64,000 nucleotides of DNA. It comes from Salinisphaera hydrothermalis C41B8 (lineage in GTDB: Bacteria; Pseudomonadota; Gammaproteobacteria; Nevskiales; Salinisphaeraceae). The notes below the pieces were generated by a model, which searched no databases, was not told the origin of the DNA, and saw only the letters and a program-made list of their open reading frames with translations. Below are positions 29,670 through 46,585 of the stretch, piece by piece (within the stretch, counting starts at the first letter, position 1; each line of letters begins with the position of its first letter). Location of the stretch: NCBI RefSeq assembly GCF_000732535.1, contig NZ_APNK01000006.1:62001-126000 (forward strand), given 5' to 3'. The translations under genes were made by a program, and so were the position numbers.

Positions 29670-31289
29670 ATGCACGTTAGCGAAAACTCAGCGACCGCTT
29701 TTTTTGCCATCAGCGTGCCCACCCTTTATCTGTGGGCCGCCCTGACGTCCGGGCATCGGCGAACCTGGGCCCGGTGGCCGGCCACACTGGTCTGTGCCCG
29801 CGCTGCGATCGGTTTCACGCTGGCGCTCGTGCTGATTCATGTCTTTACCACTCAAGCTTCGACACAAGTCGCCCGAATCCCCTGGCCCCTGCCGGCGAGC
29901 TTCGCTCCCAGCGTACGTGTCGACCCGGTGACGCTGGCCATGCTGGGGCTGATCAGCTTCATCGGCCTGGTCATCCTGACGTTTTCGCGTCGCTATCTGG
30001 CCGGGGACCCGACGGCGAATGATCCGGATCAGCATATTTACCGGCGTTGGTTCTGCGCGACGCTGGCGAGTATTTCCAGCCTGGTGATCGCCAATCAGCT
30101 GTTATGGCTCGGCGCGGCCTGGGTGGCGACCAGTCTTTGTCTGCATCAGCTGCTCACGTACTACCAGCAACGCCCGCAGGCGCTGCTGGCCGCGCACAAG
30201 AAATTCCTCATCAGCCGAATGGCGGACGCCTTCATTCTCGTGGGTCTGGTCGTGGTGGGCGTTCACTACGGCAGCTTTCAAATGGACCGCGTGTTCGCGC
30301 GGGTCGATCCGGCCGCGTTCACGCCGGGCCTGACGATCGCGACCGCCTTGATCGCGTGCGCGGCGATCCTGAAGTGTGCGCAGTTACCGTTCCATGGCTG
30401 GTTGATTCAGGTCATGGAGGCACCGACCCCGGTATCCGCCCTGCTGCACGCCGGCATCGTCAATATGGGCGGGTTCCTGATGATCCGCTTCGCACCGTTG
30501 ATGGTGCACGCCGGTCTGGCTCAGGCATTGTTGGTGATCGCCGGCACCACCACGGCCGTGATCGCCGCGTTGATCATGACCACCCGCGTGAGCATCAAGG
30601 TGATGCTGGCTTGGTCGACCTGTGCCCAGATGGGTTTCATGCTCATGGAGTGCGGGCTTGGCCTGTATAACCTGGCGCTTCTGCATCTGCTCGCCCATTC
30701 GTTCTATAAGGCCTATTCCTTTCTCAGCGCGGGCGAAATGGTAGCCACCTCGGCCCAGCGCGAGCACACGCCGCGCGGTACCGAGCCCTCGCCGGCCCGC
30801 TGGTTCGTCATTGCCGGCCTGGCAGGCCTTGCGATCCTGGCGCTGTTCACGATCCCGGGGCTGGGGCGTGGCCATCCGGCGGTGTTCTCGGTCCTCATAC
30901 TGGCGCTGGCGTCCCTGATCGGCGAGGCCAGCGGGTCGCGCGATCTGCTGCTGCGGGCCGGTGCCGGCGCGCTGGCGATCGCCGGCCTTTATCTGCTGTG
31001 GGCTTTTCTGTCCACGTTCTGGGTGCCGGCCGCGCGGGTCGCGCCGTCGACGATCAGCGAAGCCGGAATCACACTCGCCTTCGGCCTGTTGTTCGTCGTT
31101 CGCGCCATGCTGAGCACCAGCGGCGGCGCACGCCGCCTGGCCTGGTTGCACCCGCATGTGTACGGCGGTTTTTATCTGGACCAATTATTCACGCGGCTCA
31201 CGCTCGTGATCTGGCCGCCCCGGCTCCCCACGCGCGCTCCCCTGGCTACGGCCCCCGCATCCCCAACTCGGAGTACGGCGCATGAATGA
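29670..31289 (+). CDS. dabB: DabB: proton/cation-channel-like subunit of the Dab inorganic-carbon pump
   Basis: A 539-aa membrane protein of the NuoL/MrpA antiporter-like family, with about 13-14 helices. Characteristic TM phrases include LKCAQLPFHGWLIQVMEAPTPVSALLHAGIVNMGG (about 231-265), the LPFHxW and MEAPTPVSALLH motifs shared with complex I subunit L, and HLLAHSFYKAYSFL near 340. In the Dab system it couples cation flow to DabA for energy-driven CO2 hydration/bicarbonate accumulation. It overlaps dabA by 8 bp. The absence of other nuo genes nearby and the partner DUF2309 gene separate it from respiratory complex I. Confidence 0.93.
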   Translation: MHVSENSATAFFAISVPTLYLWAALTSGHRRTWARWPATLVCARAAIGFTLALVLIHVFTTQASTQVARIPWPLPASFAPSVRVDPVTLAMLGLISFIGLVILTFSRRYLAGDPTANDPDQHIYRRWFCATLASISSLVIANQLLWLGAAWVATSLCLHQLLTYYQQRPQALLAAHKKFLISRMADAFILVGLVVVGVHYGSFQMDRVFARVDPAAFTPGLTIATALIACAAILKCAQLPFHGWLIQVMEAPTPVSALLHAGIVNMGGFLMIRFAPLMVHAGLAQALLVIAGTTTAVIAALIMTTRVSIKVMLAWSTCAQMGFMLMECGLGLYNLALLHLLAHSFYKAYSFLSAGEMVATSAQREHTPRGTEPSPARWFVIAGLAGLAILALFTIPGLGRGHPAVFSVLILALASLIGEASGSRDLLLRAGAGALAIAGLYLLWAFLSTFWVPAARVAPSTISEAGITLAFGLLFVVRAMLSTSGGARRLAWLHPHVYGGFYLDQLFTRLTLVIWPPRLPTRAPLATAPASPTRSTAHE

Positions 31290-33801
31290 CGTGACGACCC
31301 CTGACACGACCGCAACGCGCCGCCCGACGGCCGCGCCTTCGGCCGAGGCCATCGATCGGGCCATCGCAGGCGCCTGCGCTCAGATTGCGCCGGCCTGGCC
31401 GCTCGACCAATCGGTGGCGGTCAATCCCTGGTGGCCCTTGCGCGGGCTGCCGATCCAGCAGGCTGCGGCCCGGGTGGCGGCCCGCGGCGGCGCCCGAGCA
31501 CTCCCCGACCGCACCTACCTGCGCAAGCAGTGGATGAACGGCCGCATCACGCGTGCCGATCTACAGGCCGCCTGTCGCGAAGCCGATTCGACGCTCGCGG
31601 TGGATACGCTGGTCGCCCATCTCGACCGGCCCTCCTGTACCGCGCGTCTGCCGTTGGTGGCCGATCAGCTCGATCAAATCCGCGATCTGGCCCACCGCAC
31701 GGCCTGGACAGAGGAAATCGTCCACGAGATCAGCCAGCTGTGTGCTTCGGAATTCGATCGCGGCCAGGGCGACTGGCCCGGCACGCGGGCCGACGAACTG
31801 TATTCGGCCTGGCATCACAATGTCGTACGCGATCGCGGCATTGCGATCCTCATGGGCGAGCCCGGCCTGCAAAAACGCTTCAAGGATCTGCCGGACAACC
31901 CGGACGCGCTCATTCGGACGGCGCTTGCCGCCATGTCGGTGCCCGCCGGCGCGATCGAGGCTTATCTGCACGCGCTGCTGATGAGCGTGAACGGCTGGGC
32001 ATCCTGGTGTGCCTATCTTGCCTGGCAGGCCGAACTCGCCGGACAGGAGAACACCGCCTTGCGGGATCTGCTCGCAATCCGTCTCGCCTGGGACTGGGTG
32101 TTGTATCGGTGGCTGGCCGACGAGGGGCTGCGCGATGGCTGGCGGCACGCGCTCACACGGGCCGAGGCGATCGAAGCCGATCACGCGCATGACCAGCGTC
32201 TCGACTGGATCTGGCTGCGCGCTCTCGAACTGGGATACCAGCGTCCGCTCATCGACGACCTGACGCACGCCGAGGCGGCGCCGACCGCATCGAGGCCCGC
32301 GGTGCAGGCGGCCTTTTGCATTGACGTCCGCTCGGAAGTCTTTCGTCGCGCCCTGGAAGCCGCGAACCCGGATATCCATACGCTGGGATTCGCCGGCTTT
32401 TTCGGTGCGCCAATCGCTTATCAGCCGCTCGGCAGTGCGGTATCACAGGCGCAGGTGCCCGGCTTGCTCGCCCCGAGTCTGCGGGTCATTCAGCAGAGCC
32501 GGCACGGCGACGACGACACCCATCGGCGGGGTGCATCGGCCATCCGTGGCCTGCACGTCGGCGATATCAGCCGGCGTTTTCGCTGGGGCAGCACGTCGAC
32601 GTTTTCCTACGTCGAGTCCACCGGGCTGTTCTATGCATTCAAGCTCTTGAAAAACGGCCTGCTGCATCAATCCGGTAGCCACTCGAGCGCGGCGACCACC
32701 GTCAGCGAGCCCGATCCGCTCACGCTGGTACTTACGGACGACGACGGGCCGCTATCCACCGAACGCAAAACCGAGCTGGCCGCCGGCATCCTGCGCGGCA
32801 TGTCGTTGACGCAGAATTTCGCCCCGATCGTGATGCTCGCCGGGCACGCCAGCCAGACCCGTAACAATCCCCAGCAATCGGCGCTCGATTGCGGTGCCTG
32901 CGGCGGCCATTCGGGAGAAATCAACGCCCGCGTGGTCACCGGGCTGTTGAACGAGCCGGCCGTGCGCGAGAGCCTGCGCGAATATGGCATCGAGGTGCCG
33001 TCCGATACCCGCTTCGTCGCCGCATTGCACAACACGACCACCGACCACATCACCCTGTTCGATCTCGACGAACCGGGCCCGCGGCATGCCGAGCTTATCG
33101 ACCGGCTCGAAGGCTGGCTGGCCGAGGCGCGCGAACGTGCGAACGATGAGCGCCGAGCCCAGCTGGAACCGGAGACGGACGCCGATGGCATGGGCTATGC
33201 CGACTTCCAGCAACGTGCCGAAGACTGGTCGCAGGTCCGCCCGGAGTGGGGGCTGGCGCGCAACGCCAGCCTGATCGTGGCCCCGCGCCGACGCACCCGC
33301 GGGCTGAATCTTGCGGGCCGCGCCTTTTTGCATGAATACGAGGCGACGCAAGACCCGCAGCACGAGATTCTCGAGTCGATCATGACCGCGCCGATGATCG
33401 TGGCGCACTGGATCAATTTCCAGTACTACGCCTCGACCGTCGACAACCGGATCTACGGCAGCGGCAATAAAACGCTGCACAACGTGGCCGGCGGCCACAT
33501 CGGGCTATTCGAGGGCAATGGCGGCGATCTGCGCATCGGCTTGTCGCTGCAGTCGCTGAGCGACGGTAAACGCTGGGTTCACGAACCGCTGCGCCTGAGC
33601 GTATTCATCGAAGCGCCGGCCGAGGCCATCGCCGATATCGTCCAGGCCCACGAGCCGATCGAGCAACTGGTCCATCATGAATGGCTGTTTCTATATCGCG
33701 TCGGCCCTACCGGCGAGCCCGTTCAGCGCTACGGCCGGCAAGGCTGGACGACCGTGAGCACGACCGACTCCGTATTGCCGGTCCGAAAATCGAAAGCGTA
33801 A
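31282..33801 (+). CDS. dabA: DabA (DUF2309): carbonic-anhydrase-like subunit of the Dab pump
   Basis: An 839-aa cytoplasmic protein. The zinc/active-site set known from DabA is present: C346 and D348 in AFCIDVRSE, H522 in AGHAS, and C537 in DCGACGGHSGE, with the same spacing as in the studied proteins. N-terminal VNPWWPLRGLP is also conserved. Together with DabB it hydrates CO2 in one direction and traps bicarbonate, feeding carbon fixation or anaplerosis. The gene starts inside the last codons of dabB, so translation is coupled. A strong hairpin follows the stop. Confidence 0.95.
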   Translation: MNDVTTPDTTATRRPTAAPSAEAIDRAIAGACAQIAPAWPLDQSVAVNPWWPLRGLPIQQAAARVAARGGARALPDRTYLRKQWMNGRITRADLQAACREADSTLAVDTLVAHLDRPSCTARLPLVADQLDQIRDLAHRTAWTEEIVHEISQLCASEFDRGQGDWPGTRADELYSAWHHNVVRDRGIAILMGEPGLQKRFKDLPDNPDALIRTALAAMSVPAGAIEAYLHALLMSVNGWASWCAYLAWQAELAGQENTALRDLLAIRLAWDWVLYRWLADEGLRDGWRHALTRAEAIEADHAHDQRLDWIWLRALELGYQRPLIDDLTHAEAAPTASRPAVQAAFCIDVRSEVFRRALEAANPDIHTLGFAGFFGAPIAYQPLGSAVSQAQVPGLLAPSLRVIQQSRHGDDDTHRRGASAIRGLHVGDISRRFRWGSTSTFSYVESTGLFYAFKLLKNGLLHQSGSHSSAATTVSEPDPLTLVLTDDDGPLSTERKTELAAGILRGMSLTQNFAPIVMLAGHASQTRNNPQQSALDCGACGGHSGEINARVVTGLLNEPAVRESLREYGIEVPSDTRFVAALHNTTTDHITLFDLDEPGPRHAELIDRLEGWLAEARERANDERRAQLEPETDADGMGYADFQQRAEDWSQVRPEWGLARNASLIVAPRRRTRGLNLAGRAFLHEYEATQDPQHEILESIMTAPMIVAHWINFQYYASTVDNRIYGSGNKTLHNVAGGHIGLFEGNGGDLRIGLSLQSLSDGKRWVHEPLRLSVFIEAPAEAIADIVQAHEPIEQLVHHEWLFLYRVGPTGEPVQRYGRQGWTTVSTTDSVLPVRKSKA

Positions 33802-34141: not shown

Positions 34142-34510
34142 ATGTCCGACACCCAGCCCACATTCGAGACGATTCAATTATCGGACCTCGAAAACATGGC
34201 ACCCGAAGATCGCGACGCGCTTGAGTTTGGCGTGATCGGTCTGCGCCCGGACACGCGGGCCGATGTCTATAACGCCACCGAGGCGAACATGGCCGGCGTC
34301 GATCCCGCACAAGTGCTGGGGGCGCCGTTTTTTTCCACCATCGGCCAATGCATGAACAATTTCATGGTCGCCCAGCGATTCGAGGACGAACCTGACCTCG
34401 ACGACATCGTGCCGTTCGTGCTGACGCTGCGCATGCGCCCCACGCGCGTGCGGTTGCGGCTGTTACAGGCGCGCGACACCGAACGCCGCTATATTCTCGT
34501 CGAACGCTGA
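34142..34510 (+). CDS. pyp: Photoactive yellow protein
   Basis: A 122-aa blue-light photoreceptor with the PYP fold. Aligned by eye to the Halorhodospira protein, it keeps the LEFGVIGL strand, the YNATEANMAG stretch with Tyr43 and Glu47 (equivalents of Tyr42 and Glu46 that hold the chromophore phenolate), FFSTIGQC with Cys70 (equivalent of Cys69, thioester to p-coumaric acid), and the MRPTRVRLRLLQ strand (PTKVKVHMKK type). Thr50 is replaced by Ala51 and Arg52 by Val53, which should change absorption and photocycle rate. TAGGAGA precedes the ATG by six bases. First gene of a three-gene unit with a PAS-GGDEF gene and p-coumarate ligase. Confidence 0.95.
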   Translation: MSDTQPTFETIQLSDLENMAPEDRDALEFGVIGLRPDTRADVYNATEANMAGVDPAQVLGAPFFSTIGQCMNNFMVAQRFEDEPDLDDIVPFVLTLRMRPTRVRLRLLQARDTERRYILVER

Positions 34511-34525
34511 TCGGAGATCGTTGGC

Positions 34526-35803
34526 ATGTCGGAAGAGGACGATCTTCTCAGTTTCATGTACGCGTGCCCATTCGGCCTGATGGAGCTCGATGCCCAAGGC
34601 AATATCGGGCTCATCAACCCGCACGCCATGAAGCACCTGCTCCCGCTCGCCGGTGCGTACGGCGTCGAGAACTTCTTCAGCGCTACCGAGAAATACGCGC
34701 CGGAGCTCCGGAATTTCGCCGACAGCTTTGTCGACTCCCACGGCACCATCTGCGATGGACACCGAATCGTGGTGGACCTGGGCTATAACAACCGCAGCAG
34801 GCAGCCCAAAGTACTGGCCTGCTCGCTGGTCAAACGGGGACCGGATCAGCTGATCGCCACCCTGAGCGATATCAGCGCCCAGGTCGCTCAAGAGCAACGG
34901 ATGCGCCAGGCCGATACGTGGTTTTCGGCGTTGATCGACCAGATCAACGATCATGCCCTATTGACGATCGCCGGAGACGGCACGGTGCTGTTCGCCAACA
35001 CCTCGTTCGAACGCCAGACCGGTTATACCGCCGAACAAGTCATTGGCCACCCCTTGGATAGCGTCCTGTCCGAAGCGGACAGCGCCGATCAGATGACGTT
35101 TTCGATCGCCGACCAGCTGGCCCTGGCGACTCGCGACGGCTGGCATCTGTTCGAGGGCTGGGAACAACGCGTCAACGGCGAGCGCTATTGGTGTCAGCGT
35201 CTGCTCGTCGCGCGTGCTGAACAGGGCGACAGCGACAACCCCACGTTCTCGATGGTATTGCGGGACGTGCCCGAACCCACCGAGAAAACCAACGACCTGA
35301 TCGAACTGCTGACGCGGGACTATCTCACCGGCGCGACCAACCGTATGCAGTTTCACAAGGTACTGAAACTCGAACACACGCGCTGCACGACACGTCGACA
35401 ACCGTTGGCCCTGATCATTCTGGATCTGGACGACTTCAAGTCGCTCAACGACGAACACGGGCATCCGGCCGGAGACACCGTGCTCAAAGAGGTGACCCGA
35501 ATCGGCGCCGACTGCACACCGGCCCGGGCCATCTTCGCGCGGCTGGGCGGCGAAGAGTTCGCTCTGCTGTTGCCGGAAAAATCGTTGCACGAGGCCGTGG
35601 ACCTCGCCCAGACGCTGCGCCGCCGGATCGCCGAATTGAAAATCGAGGTGCCCGGCGGACACATCGACGTCACCGCCAGCCTCGGCTGCGCGGAATTGAG
35701 CGAAACCGACGGATCGAGCGACGACCTCATTCGCGTCGCCGATCGCCGGCTTTACGACGCCAAATCCGAAGGGCGCGATCGCGTCGCGCCCGCCGCCGCA
35801 TGA
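34526..35803 (+). CDS. PAS-PAS-GGDEF diguanylate cyclase in the pyp operon
   Basis: A 425-aa soluble enzyme. First PAS-like region about residues 5-120 (LLSFMYACPFGLMELDAQGNIGLIN), second about 130-255 (LIDQINDHALLTIAGDGTVLFANTSFERQTGYTAEQVIG), then GGDEF with ILDLDDFKSLNDEHGHPAGD and GGEEF at about 341-345. The RxxD inhibitory site is absent. There are no membrane segments. It starts 15 bp after pyp and overlaps the ligase gene by 4 bp (ATGA). The arrangement strongly suggests that PYP controls this cyclase by protein contact, giving blue-light control of c-di-GMP; that contact is inferred. Confidence 0.92.
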   Translation: MSEEDDLLSFMYACPFGLMELDAQGNIGLINPHAMKHLLPLAGAYGVENFFSATEKYAPELRNFADSFVDSHGTICDGHRIVVDLGYNNRSRQPKVLACSLVKRGPDQLIATLSDISAQVAQEQRMRQADTWFSALIDQINDHALLTIAGDGTVLFANTSFERQTGYTAEQVIGHPLDSVLSEADSADQMTFSIADQLALATRDGWHLFEGWEQRVNGERYWCQRLLVARAEQGDSDNPTFSMVLRDVPEPTEKTNDLIELLTRDYLTGATNRMQFHKVLKLEHTRCTTRRQPLALIILDLDDFKSLNDEHGHPAGDTVLKEVTRIGADCTPARAIFARLGGEEFALLLPEKSLHEAVDLAQTLRRRIAELKIEVPGGHIDVTASLGCAELSETDGSSDDLIRVADRRLYDAKSEGRDRVAPAAA

Positions 35804-36954
35804 CCGGCGACCCGGCGCTGCCGCCGGCTGCCATCCGCCGGATCACGACCGCCGTCATCGCACGCGAGCTGCGCCGTCTGCGCGACGAGGACATCGGCCA
35901 GCCCAAAGCCACCGGAACACTCGGCGACGAAACAACCGATCCTCTGGGCCTGGATTCGCTCGAGACCATGGGCGTAGCGACCGCGCTCGGGGCGGTTTTC
36001 CAGCAGGACGATCTATCGTTCGCGCCGGATACGCCGGCCACGAGTGCCGACTGGGCGGCACGCATCGCGACACGCCCGATCGAACGACTGACGGTTTACA
36101 CATCCGGCGCTACCGGCCAGCCCCAACCGCATGCACACACAACCGTCGATCTGCTCGCGGAGGCCCGCGAACTCGCCCGGCAGTTCGCCCGGACGCGACG
36201 GGTCGTGGCTCTCGTGCCGGCCGATCATCTGTATGGCCTGATCTGGACCGCCATCTTGCCGGCGATCCTAGACGTCCCCGTGATCGCCGGCACGGTGCTG
36301 ACCCTGCCGGCGCCGGCGGCGGGCGATCTGATCGTGGGTGTGCCCGAACACTGGGCCGCGTTGGCACGCCTGGGCAAACCCTGGCCCGCTGATGTCACCG
36401 GCATCAGTTCGGGTGGCGCGTTGCCGGAGGCACTCGGGGAAGATCTGATCGCGGCCGGGCTGACGCGCCTGGTCGATGTTTATGGCAGCTCGGAAACCGG
36501 CGCGATCGGCCTGCGCGAGGTGCCTGCCAGCGGCTACACGCTCCTGTCACGATGGCAACTGACATCCGCCGCCGACACGGCTACGCTCGTCGACCGCGAG
36601 GGCCAGCCGGTGTCGCTGCCCGACGATATTCGGCCCATCGACGAACGCCGCATCGAACTCTTGGGGCGTCGCGACCACGCGGTACAAGTCGGCGGCATCA
36701 ACGTCTATCCCGACCGGATCGCGGCGGTGCTCGGCGAATGTGCGGGCGTGGCGAGCGCGGTCGTGCGGCTGGGCGATAACGGCCGGCTCAAGGCGTTCAT
36801 CGTACCGGCCGGCGAGCCAGACGAAGCCGCGCTGGAACAACAACTGCGTCAATTCGTCGCCGCGCGGTTGGCGCCCGCCGAACGCCCGACGAGTTTTCGC
36901 TTCGGCGCCGAGCTGCCGCGGAACCCCATGGGCAAACCCGCCGACTGGCGTTAA
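35800..36954 (+). CDS. pcl: PYP-type p-coumarate:CoA ligase (chromophore activation)
   Basis: A 384-aa AMP-forming ligase of the short PYP-activation family (usual 4-coumarate ligases exceed 500). Seen: P-loop YTSGATGQPQPHAHT at about 100-114, YGSSETGAIGL, the GRRDHAVQVGGINVYP hinge region and the catalytic-Lys tail LPRNPMGKPADWR. It should activate p-coumarate for transfer to Cys70 of PYP. The first ~95 residues replace the usual N-domain and include DPLGLDSLETM (Ser53), which looks like the phosphopantetheine site of a carrier protein. No tyrosine ammonia-lyase gene that would supply p-coumarate is visible in the window. Confidence 0.92.
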   Translation: MTGDPALPPAAIRRITTAVIARELRRLRDEDIGQPKATGTLGDETTDPLGLDSLETMGVATALGAVFQQDDLSFAPDTPATSADWAARIATRPIERLTVYTSGATGQPQPHAHTTVDLLAEARELARQFARTRRVVALVPADHLYGLIWTAILPAILDVPVIAGTVLTLPAPAAGDLIVGVPEHWAALARLGKPWPADVTGISSGGALPEALGEDLIAAGLTRLVDVYGSSETGAIGLREVPASGYTLLSRWQLTSAADTATLVDREGQPVSLPDDIRPIDERRIELLGRRDHAVQVGGINVYPDRIAAVLGECAGVASAVVRLGDNGRLKAFIVPAGEPDEAALEQQLRQFVAARLAPAERPTSFRFGAELPRNPMGKPADWR

Positions 36955-45213: not shown

Positions 45214-46227
45214 TCAGATATCGAGACAGATCTTGCCGAAGTGCTGGTTGGTTTCCTGGTAGCGGAACGCATCCGCCAGCTCGCTCAGCGGGAAGTGCTT
45301 GTCGATGACCGGATGAATATCGTTGGCTTCGACCGCGCGGACCATGTCCTGCTGCTGGCGCCGGTTGCCGACCAGCACGCCCTGCAGACGAATCTGCTTG
45401 GCCAGCATCGGCATCAGCGACATCTCGCCCGCCACGCCGGTCAGCACGCCGATCACGGCGATATGGCCGCCCACGCACACGGCGGTCATGGATTGTTCGA
45501 GCGTATGCGGCCCACCAACCTCGATCACGTGATCGACGCCGCGGCCACCGGTGAGATCGCGCGCGGTCTGGCCCCAGTTGGCGTCTTGCTTGTAGTTGAT
45601 CAGGTGGTCGGCGCCCAGCGCGCGCAAGCGCTCGAGCTTGTCATCGCGCGAGGAGGTGGCGATCACGGTGGCACCACAGCTCTTGGCGAACTGCAGGGCA
45701 AACACCGACACACCGCCGGTGCCCTGGACGAGTACGGTCTCGCCGGGCTGCAGCGCGCCGTCTTCCATCAACGCCCGCCAGGCGGTCAGGCCGGCGGTGG
45801 TCAGCGTCGCGGCCTCGGCCGGCGTGTAGTTGGCCGGTGCACGCGTAAAGGCCTGCGCTGACCGGGTCACGCGTTCGCGGGCATAGCCGTCGATGCCGTC
45901 GCCGGGCACGGTGTCGAAGCCTTCCACCTCGGCCTCGCCGTCGAGCCAGGTCGGGAAGAACGTGCTCACAACATGATCGCCCACGGCGAACTCGGTCACG
46001 CCCTCGCCGACCGCCTCGACATGGCCGGCGCCGTCGGCCATCGGGATACGGTCTTCGGTCACACCGCCCCAGAGCCCGGTAACCACGGCATAATCGTGGA
46101 AATTCAGTGAATTCGCCTTGAGCCGTACCGTGATTTCACCCGGCCCGGGCGCAGGCGCTTCGCGCTGTTCGCTACGCACGTTGTCATAGCCACTGCCAAC
46201 ACCGACCACAATCGCTTGATTCGACAT
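45214..46227 (-). CDS. Zinc-free MDR/quinone-oxidoreductase-like NADPH enzyme
   Basis: A 337-aa member of the medium-chain dehydrogenase family: GEITVRLKANSLNFHDYAVVTG, DGAGHVEAVGEGVTEFAVGDHV, LTTAGLTAWRAL, nucleotide-binding VLVQGTGGVSVFALQFAKSCGATVIATSS, and VIEVGGPHTLEQS. The structural Cys4 and catalytic zinc ligands of alcohol dehydrogenases are missing, so a quinone/enone reductase is likely. ATG 46227 has AAAGGAG upstream. The ArsR gene lies upstream on the same strand and a palindrome separates them. Confidence 0.88.
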   Translation of the reverse strand: MSNQAIVVGVGSGYDNVRSEQREAPAPGPGEITVRLKANSLNFHDYAVVTGLWGGVTEDRIPMADGAGHVEAVGEGVTEFAVGDHVVSTFFPTWLDGEAEVEGFDTVPGDGIDGYARERVTRSAQAFTRAPANYTPAEAATLTTAGLTAWRALMEDGALQPGETVLVQGTGGVSVFALQFAKSCGATVIATSSRDDKLERLRALGADHLINYKQDANWGQTARDLTGGRGVDHVIEVGGPHTLEQSMTAVCVGGHIAVIGVLTGVAGEMSLMPMLAKQIRLQGVLVGNRRQQQDMVRAVEANDIHPVIDKHFPLSELADAFRYQETNQHFGKICLDI

Positions 46228-46249
46228 ATCTGGCTCCTTTCGATTCGTT

Positions 46250-46269
46250 ATTTCGTTAACTGACGAAAT
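46250..46269. promoter_or_regulatory. ArsR-type operator palindrome
   Basis: ATTTCGT-TAACTG-ACGAAAT is a 20-bp inverted repeat with 7-bp arms, placed 22 bp upstream of the oxidoreductase start and downstream of the ArsR stop. Its spacing is typical of ArsR-family sites. Confidence 0.65.
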
Positions 46270-46285
46270 GTTTGGGCCTACGGTA

Positions 46286-46585
46286 TCAAACCATGCGGCG
46301 GATGTCGTCCAGCAAGGCCTCGATCGCCGGTTCATTGCGGCGGTAATACGTCCATTTGCCGATCCGCGTGGCACAAACCAGCTCCGCGCGCTGGAGAATC
46401 GCCAGATGCGTCGAGGCCGTGGACGGCGACAACCCGGCCTTGTGCTGGATATGACTGACGCAGACGCCGATGCCCACCGGATCACCATGCGCCTGCGGCG
46501 GAAACTGTGTGTCCGGCTCGCGCAGCCAGGTCATGATCTGCAGGCGCGTATCGCTGGCCAGAGCCTTGAGTTGATCCACCATCAT
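46286..46585 (-). CDS. ArsR-family transcriptional regulator
   Basis: A 99-aa winged-helix protein: MMVDQLKALASDTRLQIMTWL, recognition helix GLSPSTASTHLAILQRAELV, and wing ATRIGKWTYYRRNEPAIEALLDDI. No CxC metal motif is seen (the single Cys in GVCVSH is isolated), so it may sense something other than arsenic, for example a redox or quinone signal. It is upstream of, and probably represses, the oxidoreductase gene through the 46250-46269 palindrome. Start at the MM pair is by homology; the frame continues 50 codons upstream without homology. Confidence 0.85.
   Translation of the reverse strand: MMVDQLKALASDTRLQIMTWLREPDTQFPPQAHGDPVGIGVCVSHIQHKAGLSPSTASTHLAILQRAELVCATRIGKWTYYRRNEPAIEALLDDIRRMV

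What the first reader, a model, noticed from the sequence alone, without database searches (positions are those of the whole stretch)
34142..36954. Blue-light to cyclic-di-GMP operon: PYP, PAS-PAS-GGDEF, PYP-type p-coumarate ligase
Seen: a PYP with the chromophore Cys and its Tyr/Glu partners, a soluble PAS-PAS-GGDEF enzyme 15 bp downstream, and a short chromophore-activating ligase overlapping it by 4 bp. Known: PYP is a ligand-binding blue-light sensor, and PYP has been linked to light-dependent biofilm behaviour in some marine bacteria. Inference: in this operon PYP directly controls the neighbouring cyclase, whose lack of an RxxD site would make light the main brake. A clean three-gene module that pairs sensor, output and chromophore supply looks little studied.
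Basis: partly seen in the sequence, partly recalled or inferred. Interest (0 to 1): 0.87.

Follow-up and report, generated by a model that had tools for sequence, protein, structure and literature searches.

The report
Blue-light module with carrier-fused chromophore ligase
A marine-type bacterium carries a three-gene set in which a blue-light sensor protein sits next to an enzyme making the biofilm messenger c-di-GMP, and the third gene, which charges the sensor's light-absorbing pigment, turns out to contain an overlooked built-in carrier arm that may hand the pigment over directly.

Summary
In detail: PYP (34142-34510), a soluble GGDEF cyclase 15 bp later, and a 384-aa PYP-type ligase overlapping it by 4 bp. 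The genus is Salinisphaera. The order PYP-DGC-pCL occurs in all 4 of 14 genus genomes that have this PYP, with largely unrelated flanks. In a 19-locus sample (alpha-, beta-, gammaproteobacteria) the cyclase directly follows this PYP type in 18, and pCL follows the cyclase in 11. PYP-GGDEF neighbourhoods are already published (PMC9664959, PMC12826048). RxxD loss is lineage-specific (absent in 7, present in 11 of 18 cyclases read), so 'light is the main brake' is not supported. The first PAS is unconfirmed.

Beyond the finding: PYP-type 'CoA ligases' begin with an acyl-carrier domain. D-S-(L/I) is present in 24 of 24 collected; a profile of the domain retrieves acyl carrier proteins from the PDB (best E 3.5e-5). 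In my sample their adenylation domain groups with aryl-polyene-type ligases; one such enzyme, ApeH, loads an ACP without a CoA intermediate (PMC8253772). The chromophore may therefore travel on a phosphopantetheine arm rather than free CoA. None of 14 genus genomes has an aromatic ammonia-lyase match, so p-coumarate is probably imported.

The parts
34142..34510 (+). Divergent photoactive yellow protein (122 aa); Tyr43, Glu47, Cys70
34349..34351 (+). Chromophore-binding Cys70 codon (Cys69 of H. halophila PYP)
   Evidence: Cys in 28 of 28 aligned PYPs
34526..35803 (+). Soluble sensor diguanylate cyclase (425 aa): N-terminal domain, PAS, GGDEF
34526..34885 (+). Conserved N-terminal domain (residues 1-120), PAS-like at best; candidate docking domain for PYP (inference)
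   Evidence: (low confidence)
34922..35275 (+). PAS domain (residues about 133-250)
35297..35785 (+). GGDEF domain with GGEEF and no RxxD inhibition site
35800..36954 (+). PYP-type p-coumarate ligase (384 aa): carrier domain plus adenylation domain
35800..36075 (+). N-terminal acyl-carrier-protein-like domain (residues 1-92)
35956..35958 (+). Ser53 codon, predicted 4'-phosphopantetheine attachment site (L-D-S-L-E)
36076..36951 (+). Shortened ANL adenylation domain; A3-type motif TSGATG at residues 101-106 (motif name recalled)

Best explanation
A self-contained blue-light to c-di-GMP module. Step 1 (carrier homology shown, function inferred): p-coumarate, probably imported because no ammonia lyase was found, is adenylated by pCL and loaded on the phosphopantetheine arm of pCL's own N-terminal carrier domain. 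Step 2 (inferred): the carrier-bound p-coumaroyl thioester is exchanged onto Cys70 of PYP. Step 3 (established for other PYPs, inferred here): blue light isomerises the chromophore, Glu47 donates a proton and PYP changes conformation. Step 4 (inferred from synteny and signature): PYP binds the adjacent soluble cyclase, most likely through its conserved N-terminal domain, and sets its GGDEF output. The sign of the light effect is open; reduced activity in light would fit Idiomarina loihiensis, where PYP mediates a blue-light reduction of biofilm (as cited in PMC12826048, passage).
For: Same order in 4 of 4 PYP-positive genomes of 14 in the genus, with this PYP and pCL in exactly the same 4. Across the 19-locus sample: cyclase next in 18, then pCL in 11. 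These PYPs share C(M/L)NN(F/Y)(M/L)VA(Q/E)RF and TLRMRP: 19 of 19, against 0 of 9 canonical PYPs. Carrier domain: DS(L/I) 49-79 residues before the A3-type motif in 24 of 24 pCLs; Asp52, Ser53 and Trp85 the only invariant residues among 20 aligned domains; profile against PDB gives ACPs, best E 3.5e-5; profile-profile with ACPs of aryl-polyene-type clusters P = 4.3e-5 (probability 69%) with Ser on Ser, 30 column shuffles at most 2.7%; helix starting at Ser53 in the model. The adenylation domain groups with 12 aryl-polyene-type ligases against 8 other TIGR02372-matching proteins of the same genome, support 1.0, and 11 of those 12 ligases have a stand-alone ACP motif within 6 kb. PMC8253772 (passages): ApeH loads an ACP without forming a CoA thioester.
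Against: No binding, photochemistry or activity was tested. FlxY, the ligase of the flexirubin (aryl-polyene) pathway, makes 4-coumaroyl-CoA in vitro (PMC3992019 passages), and pCL is described as a CoA ligase in PMC12826048. Pfam PP-binding does not find the window's own carrier domain and finds 6 of 20 members at E up to 1. The PDB search by fold returned adenylating enzymes only. The loop at residues 31-47 of the model is below pLDDT 50. Three of 19 loci have the PYP without a pCL in the stretch read, so an adjacent pCL is not obligatory. The cyclase N-terminal domain is unassigned and the cyclase model is poor, pLDDT 60.
Confidence: 0.55

Rival explanations
1. pCL is an ordinary p-coumarate:CoA ligase; its N-terminal carrier-like domain is a structural relic and PYP reacts with free p-coumaroyl-CoA, as currently described.
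For: pCL is described as making p-coumaroyl-CoA (PMC12826048, section 8); FlxY makes 4-coumaroyl-CoA in vitro; the best Foldseek matches of the model are benzoate-CoA ligases.
Against: A relic should not keep its attachment serine: Asp-Ser are 2 of the only 3 invariant residues in a domain with 31% mean column identity, and the motif is present in 24 of 24. The closest sampled adenylation domains mostly sit beside stand-alone ACPs.
Confidence: 0.4
2. PYP does not act on the neighbouring cyclase; the genes are only co-expressed and the cyclase answers to another signal through its PAS domain.
For: The PAS domain (9.9e-9) could bind its own ligand; no interaction data exist; synteny alone does not prove contact. 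One of 19 loci has this PYP, signature included, without an adjacent cyclase.
Against: Adjacency in 18 of 19 loci across three proteobacterial classes, on plasmids and in differing surroundings; type-specific PYP signature; PYP is also found fused to GGDEF/EAL proteins in other species (PMC12826048, passages).
Confidence: 0.2
3. The module is a two-input gate: with no ammonia lyase in the genome, PYP becomes photoactive only when hydroxycinnamate is taken up, so it reports the coincidence of plant- or alga-derived p-coumarate and blue light.
For: Aromatic ammonia lyase (PF00221) found in 0 of 14 genus genomes, while 5 of 14 control genomes rang; PMC12826048 (section 8) suggests uptake for some bacteria and finds TAL in only 7 of the pyp operons it analysed.
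Against: Uptake genes were not searched. An aryl-polyene-like cluster, whose first elongated carrier-bound intermediate should be p-coumaroyl (my inference), is present in this genome, but its ligase is in only 2 of the 4 PYP-positive genus genomes, so the source is not settled.
Confidence: 0.35

Closest known systems
PYP next to GGDEF/EAL genes (clade C of PMC9664959; 29 of 113 pyp operons in PMC12826048; I. loihiensis)
   Same: Single-domain PYP directly upstream of a cyclase gene; proposed control of c-di-GMP
   Different: The ligase is the third gene of the same operon; no EAL gene within the operon or the next gene; the cyclase lacks RxxD. Clade membership by tree was not tested.
Halorhodospira halophila pyp-pCL-TAL operon
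   Same: PYP and PYP-type ligase in one operon; same ligase family. The ligase beside the most H. halophila-like PYP that I checked (L059; E 3.7e-65 to its structures) also carries the carrier motif; the H. halophila ligase itself was not read.
   Different: A cyclase lies between PYP and ligase; no ammonia lyase; the window PYP is 30% identical to a canonical PYP
ApeH acyl-ACP synthetase of aryl-polyene clusters
   Same: Aryl-polyene-type ligases are the nearest adenylation-domain relatives in my sample; aromatic 4-hydroxy acid substrate; works with an ACP (PMC8253772, passages)
   Different: The carrier is a separate protein in aryl-polyene clusters and fused N-terminally in pCL; the final acceptor here would be a protein cysteine
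Ppd (PYP-phytochrome-GGDEF/EAL fusion of Thermochromatium tepidum; as described in PMC9664959 and PMC12826048 passages)
   Same: PYP coupled to c-di-GMP enzymes
   Different: One fused protein with a phytochrome; here separate proteins and no phytochrome in the operon

Membership tests
Photoactive yellow protein | Chromophore Cys with Tyr/Glu pocket partners | tested here: met
   Cys70, Tyr43, Glu47 in the window; Cys and Glu in 28 of 28 aligned PYPs, Tyr in 26 and Phe in 2
Photoactive yellow protein | TIGR02373 equivalog cut-off (143 bits) | tested here: not met
   55.4 bits; filed as a divergent PYP by homology and pocket residues, not as the canonical equivalog
Photoactive yellow protein | Bound p-coumarate and blue-light photocycle | not testable with these tools
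   needs protein
Diguanylate cyclase | GGDEF domain with intact GG(D/E)EF | tested here: met
   PF00990 5.8e-38, GGEEF
PAS-PAS-GGDEF | Two PAS domains | tested here: inconclusive
   second met; first: no Pfam match in the window protein, sub-threshold PAS_4/PAS_8 in 2 of 7 proteins scanned, hhalign local and weak only
PYP-type 4-coumarate ligase (TIGR02372) | Curated cut-off 334.7 bits | tested here: not met
   270 bits; no match over the cut-off in any of 146 relatives or 398 phylum genomes, including the pCL next to the canonical PYP in G007; plasmid pCLs were not scored with this model
PYP-type 4-coumarate ligase (TIGR02372) | Near full-length match and linkage to pyp | tested here: met
   profile positions 6-384 of 386; same operon
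Acyl carrier domain | Homology to carrier proteins | tested here: met
   family profile; not detectable by Pfam in the window sequence alone
Acyl carrier domain | Conserved Asp-Ser attachment site at a helix start | tested here: met
   24 of 24; helix 53-66
Acyl carrier domain | Phosphopantetheine actually attached | not testable with these tools
   one PPTase-family hit (PF01648) exists in the genome

The most novel reading that the evidence does not exclude
The enzyme family long called p-coumarate:CoA ligase in PYP biology is a self-loading carrier-adenylation didomain, related to aryl-polyene ACP ligases, that hands the chromophore from its own phosphopantetheine arm to the PYP cysteine. 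PYP would then be a photoreceptor whose chromophore is installed by carrier-protein chemistry rather than from free CoA.
Probability: 0.4. Interest if true: 0.75.

Novelty: new variant of a known kind. Interest (0 to 1): 0.6.

Why it matters
What PYP acts on is described as an open gap (PMC12826048 abstract), and how its chromophore is delivered has been taken to be free CoA. The carrier domain, if used, changes the accepted route of chromophore loading for a model photoreceptor and for tags derived from it, and a single S53A mutant tests it. The compact PYP-cyclase-ligase set gives a small, portable system in which the missing PYP signalling partner can be tested directly.

Tried and rejected
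Light as main brake because RxxD is missing: rejected as a general mechanism. Of 18 orthologous cyclases read, 7 lack RxxD and 11 have it (10, G724); the 11 include near-identical strains (3 Rhizobium, 2 Caballeronia SBC, 2 Polymorphobacter). Two further rows (L076, L077) are not orthologues.

Aryl-polyene pathway as the general chromophore source: the own genome has such a cluster, but its ligase is in only 2 of 14 genus genomes against PYP in 4 of 14, so it is not required. The ApeP profile PF22817 rang nowhere in the genus or the controls, so it was uninformative.

First cyclase domain as PAS: not confirmed. Cyclase/PYP coevolution: identity correlations of 0.85 and 0.89 for two cyclase domains show shared inheritance only; the GGDEF value could not be computed because L066 ends before that domain. 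Near-duplicate strains L078 and L079, and L076, were left out.

Foldseek (50 of 1557 matches shown) returned adenylating enzymes and said nothing about the carrier part. The promoter scan found none. PAS domains are common in the genome (21 hits), so PAS presence by itself is unremarkable. The species-genome scan used only two peptide patterns and is not a census. Viral, phage, E. coli and metagenome collections were not searched.

Literature: searches. Those bearing on a carrier or ACP link of the PYP ligase (25, 26, 63, 94, 109) gave no paper whose listing or read passages state it; most papers listed by 26 and 63 were not opened, only open-licence papers are held, and the original pCL paper and the 2012 family review were not available.
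Full report
Observation. Left of them lies a DabA gene (31282-33801, PF10070 at 3.2e-260) preceded by a NuoL-like gene; right of them an oppositely oriented histidine kinase and response regulator. So the set stands alone as a probable operon.

PYP. It is divergent (TIGR02373 55 bits against a cut-off of 143; 30% identity to the canonical PYP of a sister genome) but keeps Tyr43, Glu47 and Cys70. Where the 9 canonical PYPs have Thr50, Arg52 and Pro68 it has Ala, Val and Gln. PYPs of this type share C(M/L)NN(F/Y)(M/L)VA(Q/E)RF and TLRMRP, in 19 of 19 against 0 of 9 canonical ones (17 and 8 unique sequences). I propose these stretches as the cyclase-facing surface; that is inference, and the one PYP of the type without an adjacent cyclase (L076) has them too.

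Cyclase. GGDEF and one PAS are clear, GGEEF is intact, and no hydrophobic segment is seen. The N-terminal 120 residues are well conserved but not demonstrably PAS; the model of the protein is poor (pLDDT 60). RxxD is missing in the window and in 6 further cyclases (three Salinisphaera, two MAGs labelled Rhodobacteraceae, Sphingomonas insulae) and present in 11 others, near-identical strains included. In G007 the motif reads SGEEF.

Distribution. Of 14 genus genomes, 4 have this PYP (at least 49 bits; apart from one canonical PYP in G007, the other hits are PAS-like matches of 25 bits or less) and the same 4 have pCL at 265 bits or more. All 4 have the order PYP-DGC-pCL. Their surroundings differ: outside the module the compared flanks (6 to 24 kb per locus, E up to 1e-10) share one stretch between the window and G007 and otherwise only matches to other GGDEF genes. 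A scan of species genomes with two peptide patterns gave 4 loci: two of these Salinisphaera and two MAGs named Rhodobacteraceae, whose assignment I did not check. Plasmids gave 13 records, one of them (Niveispirillum) a canonical PYP. My sample of this PYP type is 19 loci: 4 Salinisphaera, 2 MAGs, G724 and 12 plasmid loci; it is not random and contains close strains. The cyclase is the next gene on the same strand in 18 (not in Comamonadaceae; for G724 the GGDEF part was read). pCL follows it in 11: 4 Salinisphaera, 2 MAGs, Sphingomonas, 3 Rhizobium, Methylobacterium. In Caballeronia, Indioceanicola and G724 pCL lies upstream or on the other strand, and no pCL is seen in the two Polymorphobacter stretches and in Comamonadaceae. 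In G007, Caballeronia SBC1 and SBC2, and Indioceanicola a canonical PYP coexists with this type.

Prior art for the pair. PMC12826048 (abstract, sections 5 and 8, passages) lists GGDEF/EAL genes in 29 and pCL in 42 of 113 predicted pyp operons; PMC9664959 (passages) reports clade C PYPs next to GGDEF genes and a model in which PYP modulates the adjacent protein. I did not build the tree that would place the window PYP in clade C.

The ligase. All 24 pCL sequences that I collected (21 after removal of identical ones) carry DS(L/I) 49-79 residues before the adenylation A3-type motif. In an alignment of 20 of these N-terminal domains Asp52, Ser53 and Trp85 are the only invariant residues. A profile of it against all PDB sequences gave 106 matches at E up to 10; the 60 shown are carrier proteins or carrier-bearing proteins by name (NDUFAB1, SDAP and PigH counted as such from recall), best E 3.5e-5. 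Profile-profile comparison with ACPs of aryl-polyene-type clusters gave P 4.3e-5 (probability 69%) with serine aligned on serine; 30 column shuffles gave at most 2.7% and the reversed profile 0.1%. Single-sequence Pfam search is weak: PP-binding in 6 of 20, best 1.3e-4, and not in the window protein. The model (5 sequences, pLDDT 79.7) has helices 9-30, 53-66 and 82-90, Ser53 opening the second, with a disordered loop at 31-47. So homology to acyl carrier proteins is well supported; use of the serine is not shown. The pCL next to the most H. halophila-like PYP that I checked (L059; E 3.7e-65 to its structures) has the motif too, so this may well hold for the classical system, whose ligase I could not read.

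Where the ligase comes from. With a profile of pCL adenylation domains, 12 aryl-polyene-type ligases score 103-145 bits and 8 other TIGR02372-matching proteins of the same genome 42-72 bits; a midpoint-rooted tree of 41 sequences separates pCL plus aryl-polyene-type ligases from the others with support 1.0, and pCL as one group with 0.90. Eleven of the 12 were picked by their similarity to TIGR02372 and the twelfth and the 8 others come, so this comparison favours the aryl-polyene set and the outgroup comes from one genome only. 'Aryl-polyene-type' rests on Pfam for two clusters (L081: ACP, ketosynthases, ketoreductase, ApeP-like dehydratase; L091: ACP, ketosynthase, thioesterase) and on a stand-alone ACP motif within 6 kb in 11 of 12 (within 1.3 kb for 10; none for L082), a pattern with 0 hits in 244 kb of other loci. 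PMC8253772 (passages) states that ApeH of Xenorhabdus adenylates 4-hydroxybenzoate and loads the ACP with no intermediate CoA thioester; PMC8358021 (passages) calls the loading part AasS-like. Against this, FlxY makes 4-coumaroyl-CoA (PMC3992019 passages).

Chromophore source. Aromatic ammonia lyase (PF00221) has no match in any of 14 genus genomes while 5 of 14 control genomes rang. The own genome has an aryl-polyene-like cluster with a PPTase hit beside it, but its ligase occurs only in G000 and G007. Uptake is the simplest source; transport genes were not searched.

Mechanism and verdict. Shown: gene order, conservation, pocket residues, GGDEF motif, carrier homology. Inferred: loading of the carrier arm, transfer to PYP, binding to and control of the cyclase, and the sign of the light effect. 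The operon is a new member of a published association; the carrier-adenylation architecture of the ligase is the part that I did not find in print (open-licence library only, most listed papers not opened).

Noticed in passing
L091:1-12727 (own genome C2, about 60-73 kb): Aryl-polyene-like cluster (ACP, short AMP ligase, ketosynthase, 4HBT thioesterase by Pfam; exporter-like and reductase-like ORFs by eye) with a PPTase-family hit beside it; its ligase is present in 2 of 14 genus genomes, both PYP-positive.
   Followed up: partly
L040:6774-8394 and L039:4567-7374: One Salinisphaera genome (G007) has two PYPs: canonical with pCL, divergent with cyclase and pCL.
   Followed up: partly
L075:1483-6628: Indioceanicola profundi plasmid: canonical pyp, pcl, ammonia lyase, divergent pyp and GGDEF gene in one run, so one ligase may serve both PYPs.
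   Followed up: no
L067, L073, L074, L076, L079: Divergent PYPs are annotated 'phosphonate transporter' in these plasmid records.
   Followed up: no
L076:4956-10321: Comamonadaceae plasmid: divergent PYP without an adjacent cyclase, but near a BLUF gene, a large PAS protein and a cut cyclase gene.
   Followed up: no
window 29670-33801: NuoL-like gene and DabA (inorganic carbon transporter subunit) next to a LysR-type regulator, directly left of the module.
   Followed up: no
window 45217-46530 (-): Gene 90% identical to one about 3.4 kb upstream of the module in G007; the only non-GGDEF flank region shared by the compared loci.
   Followed up: no
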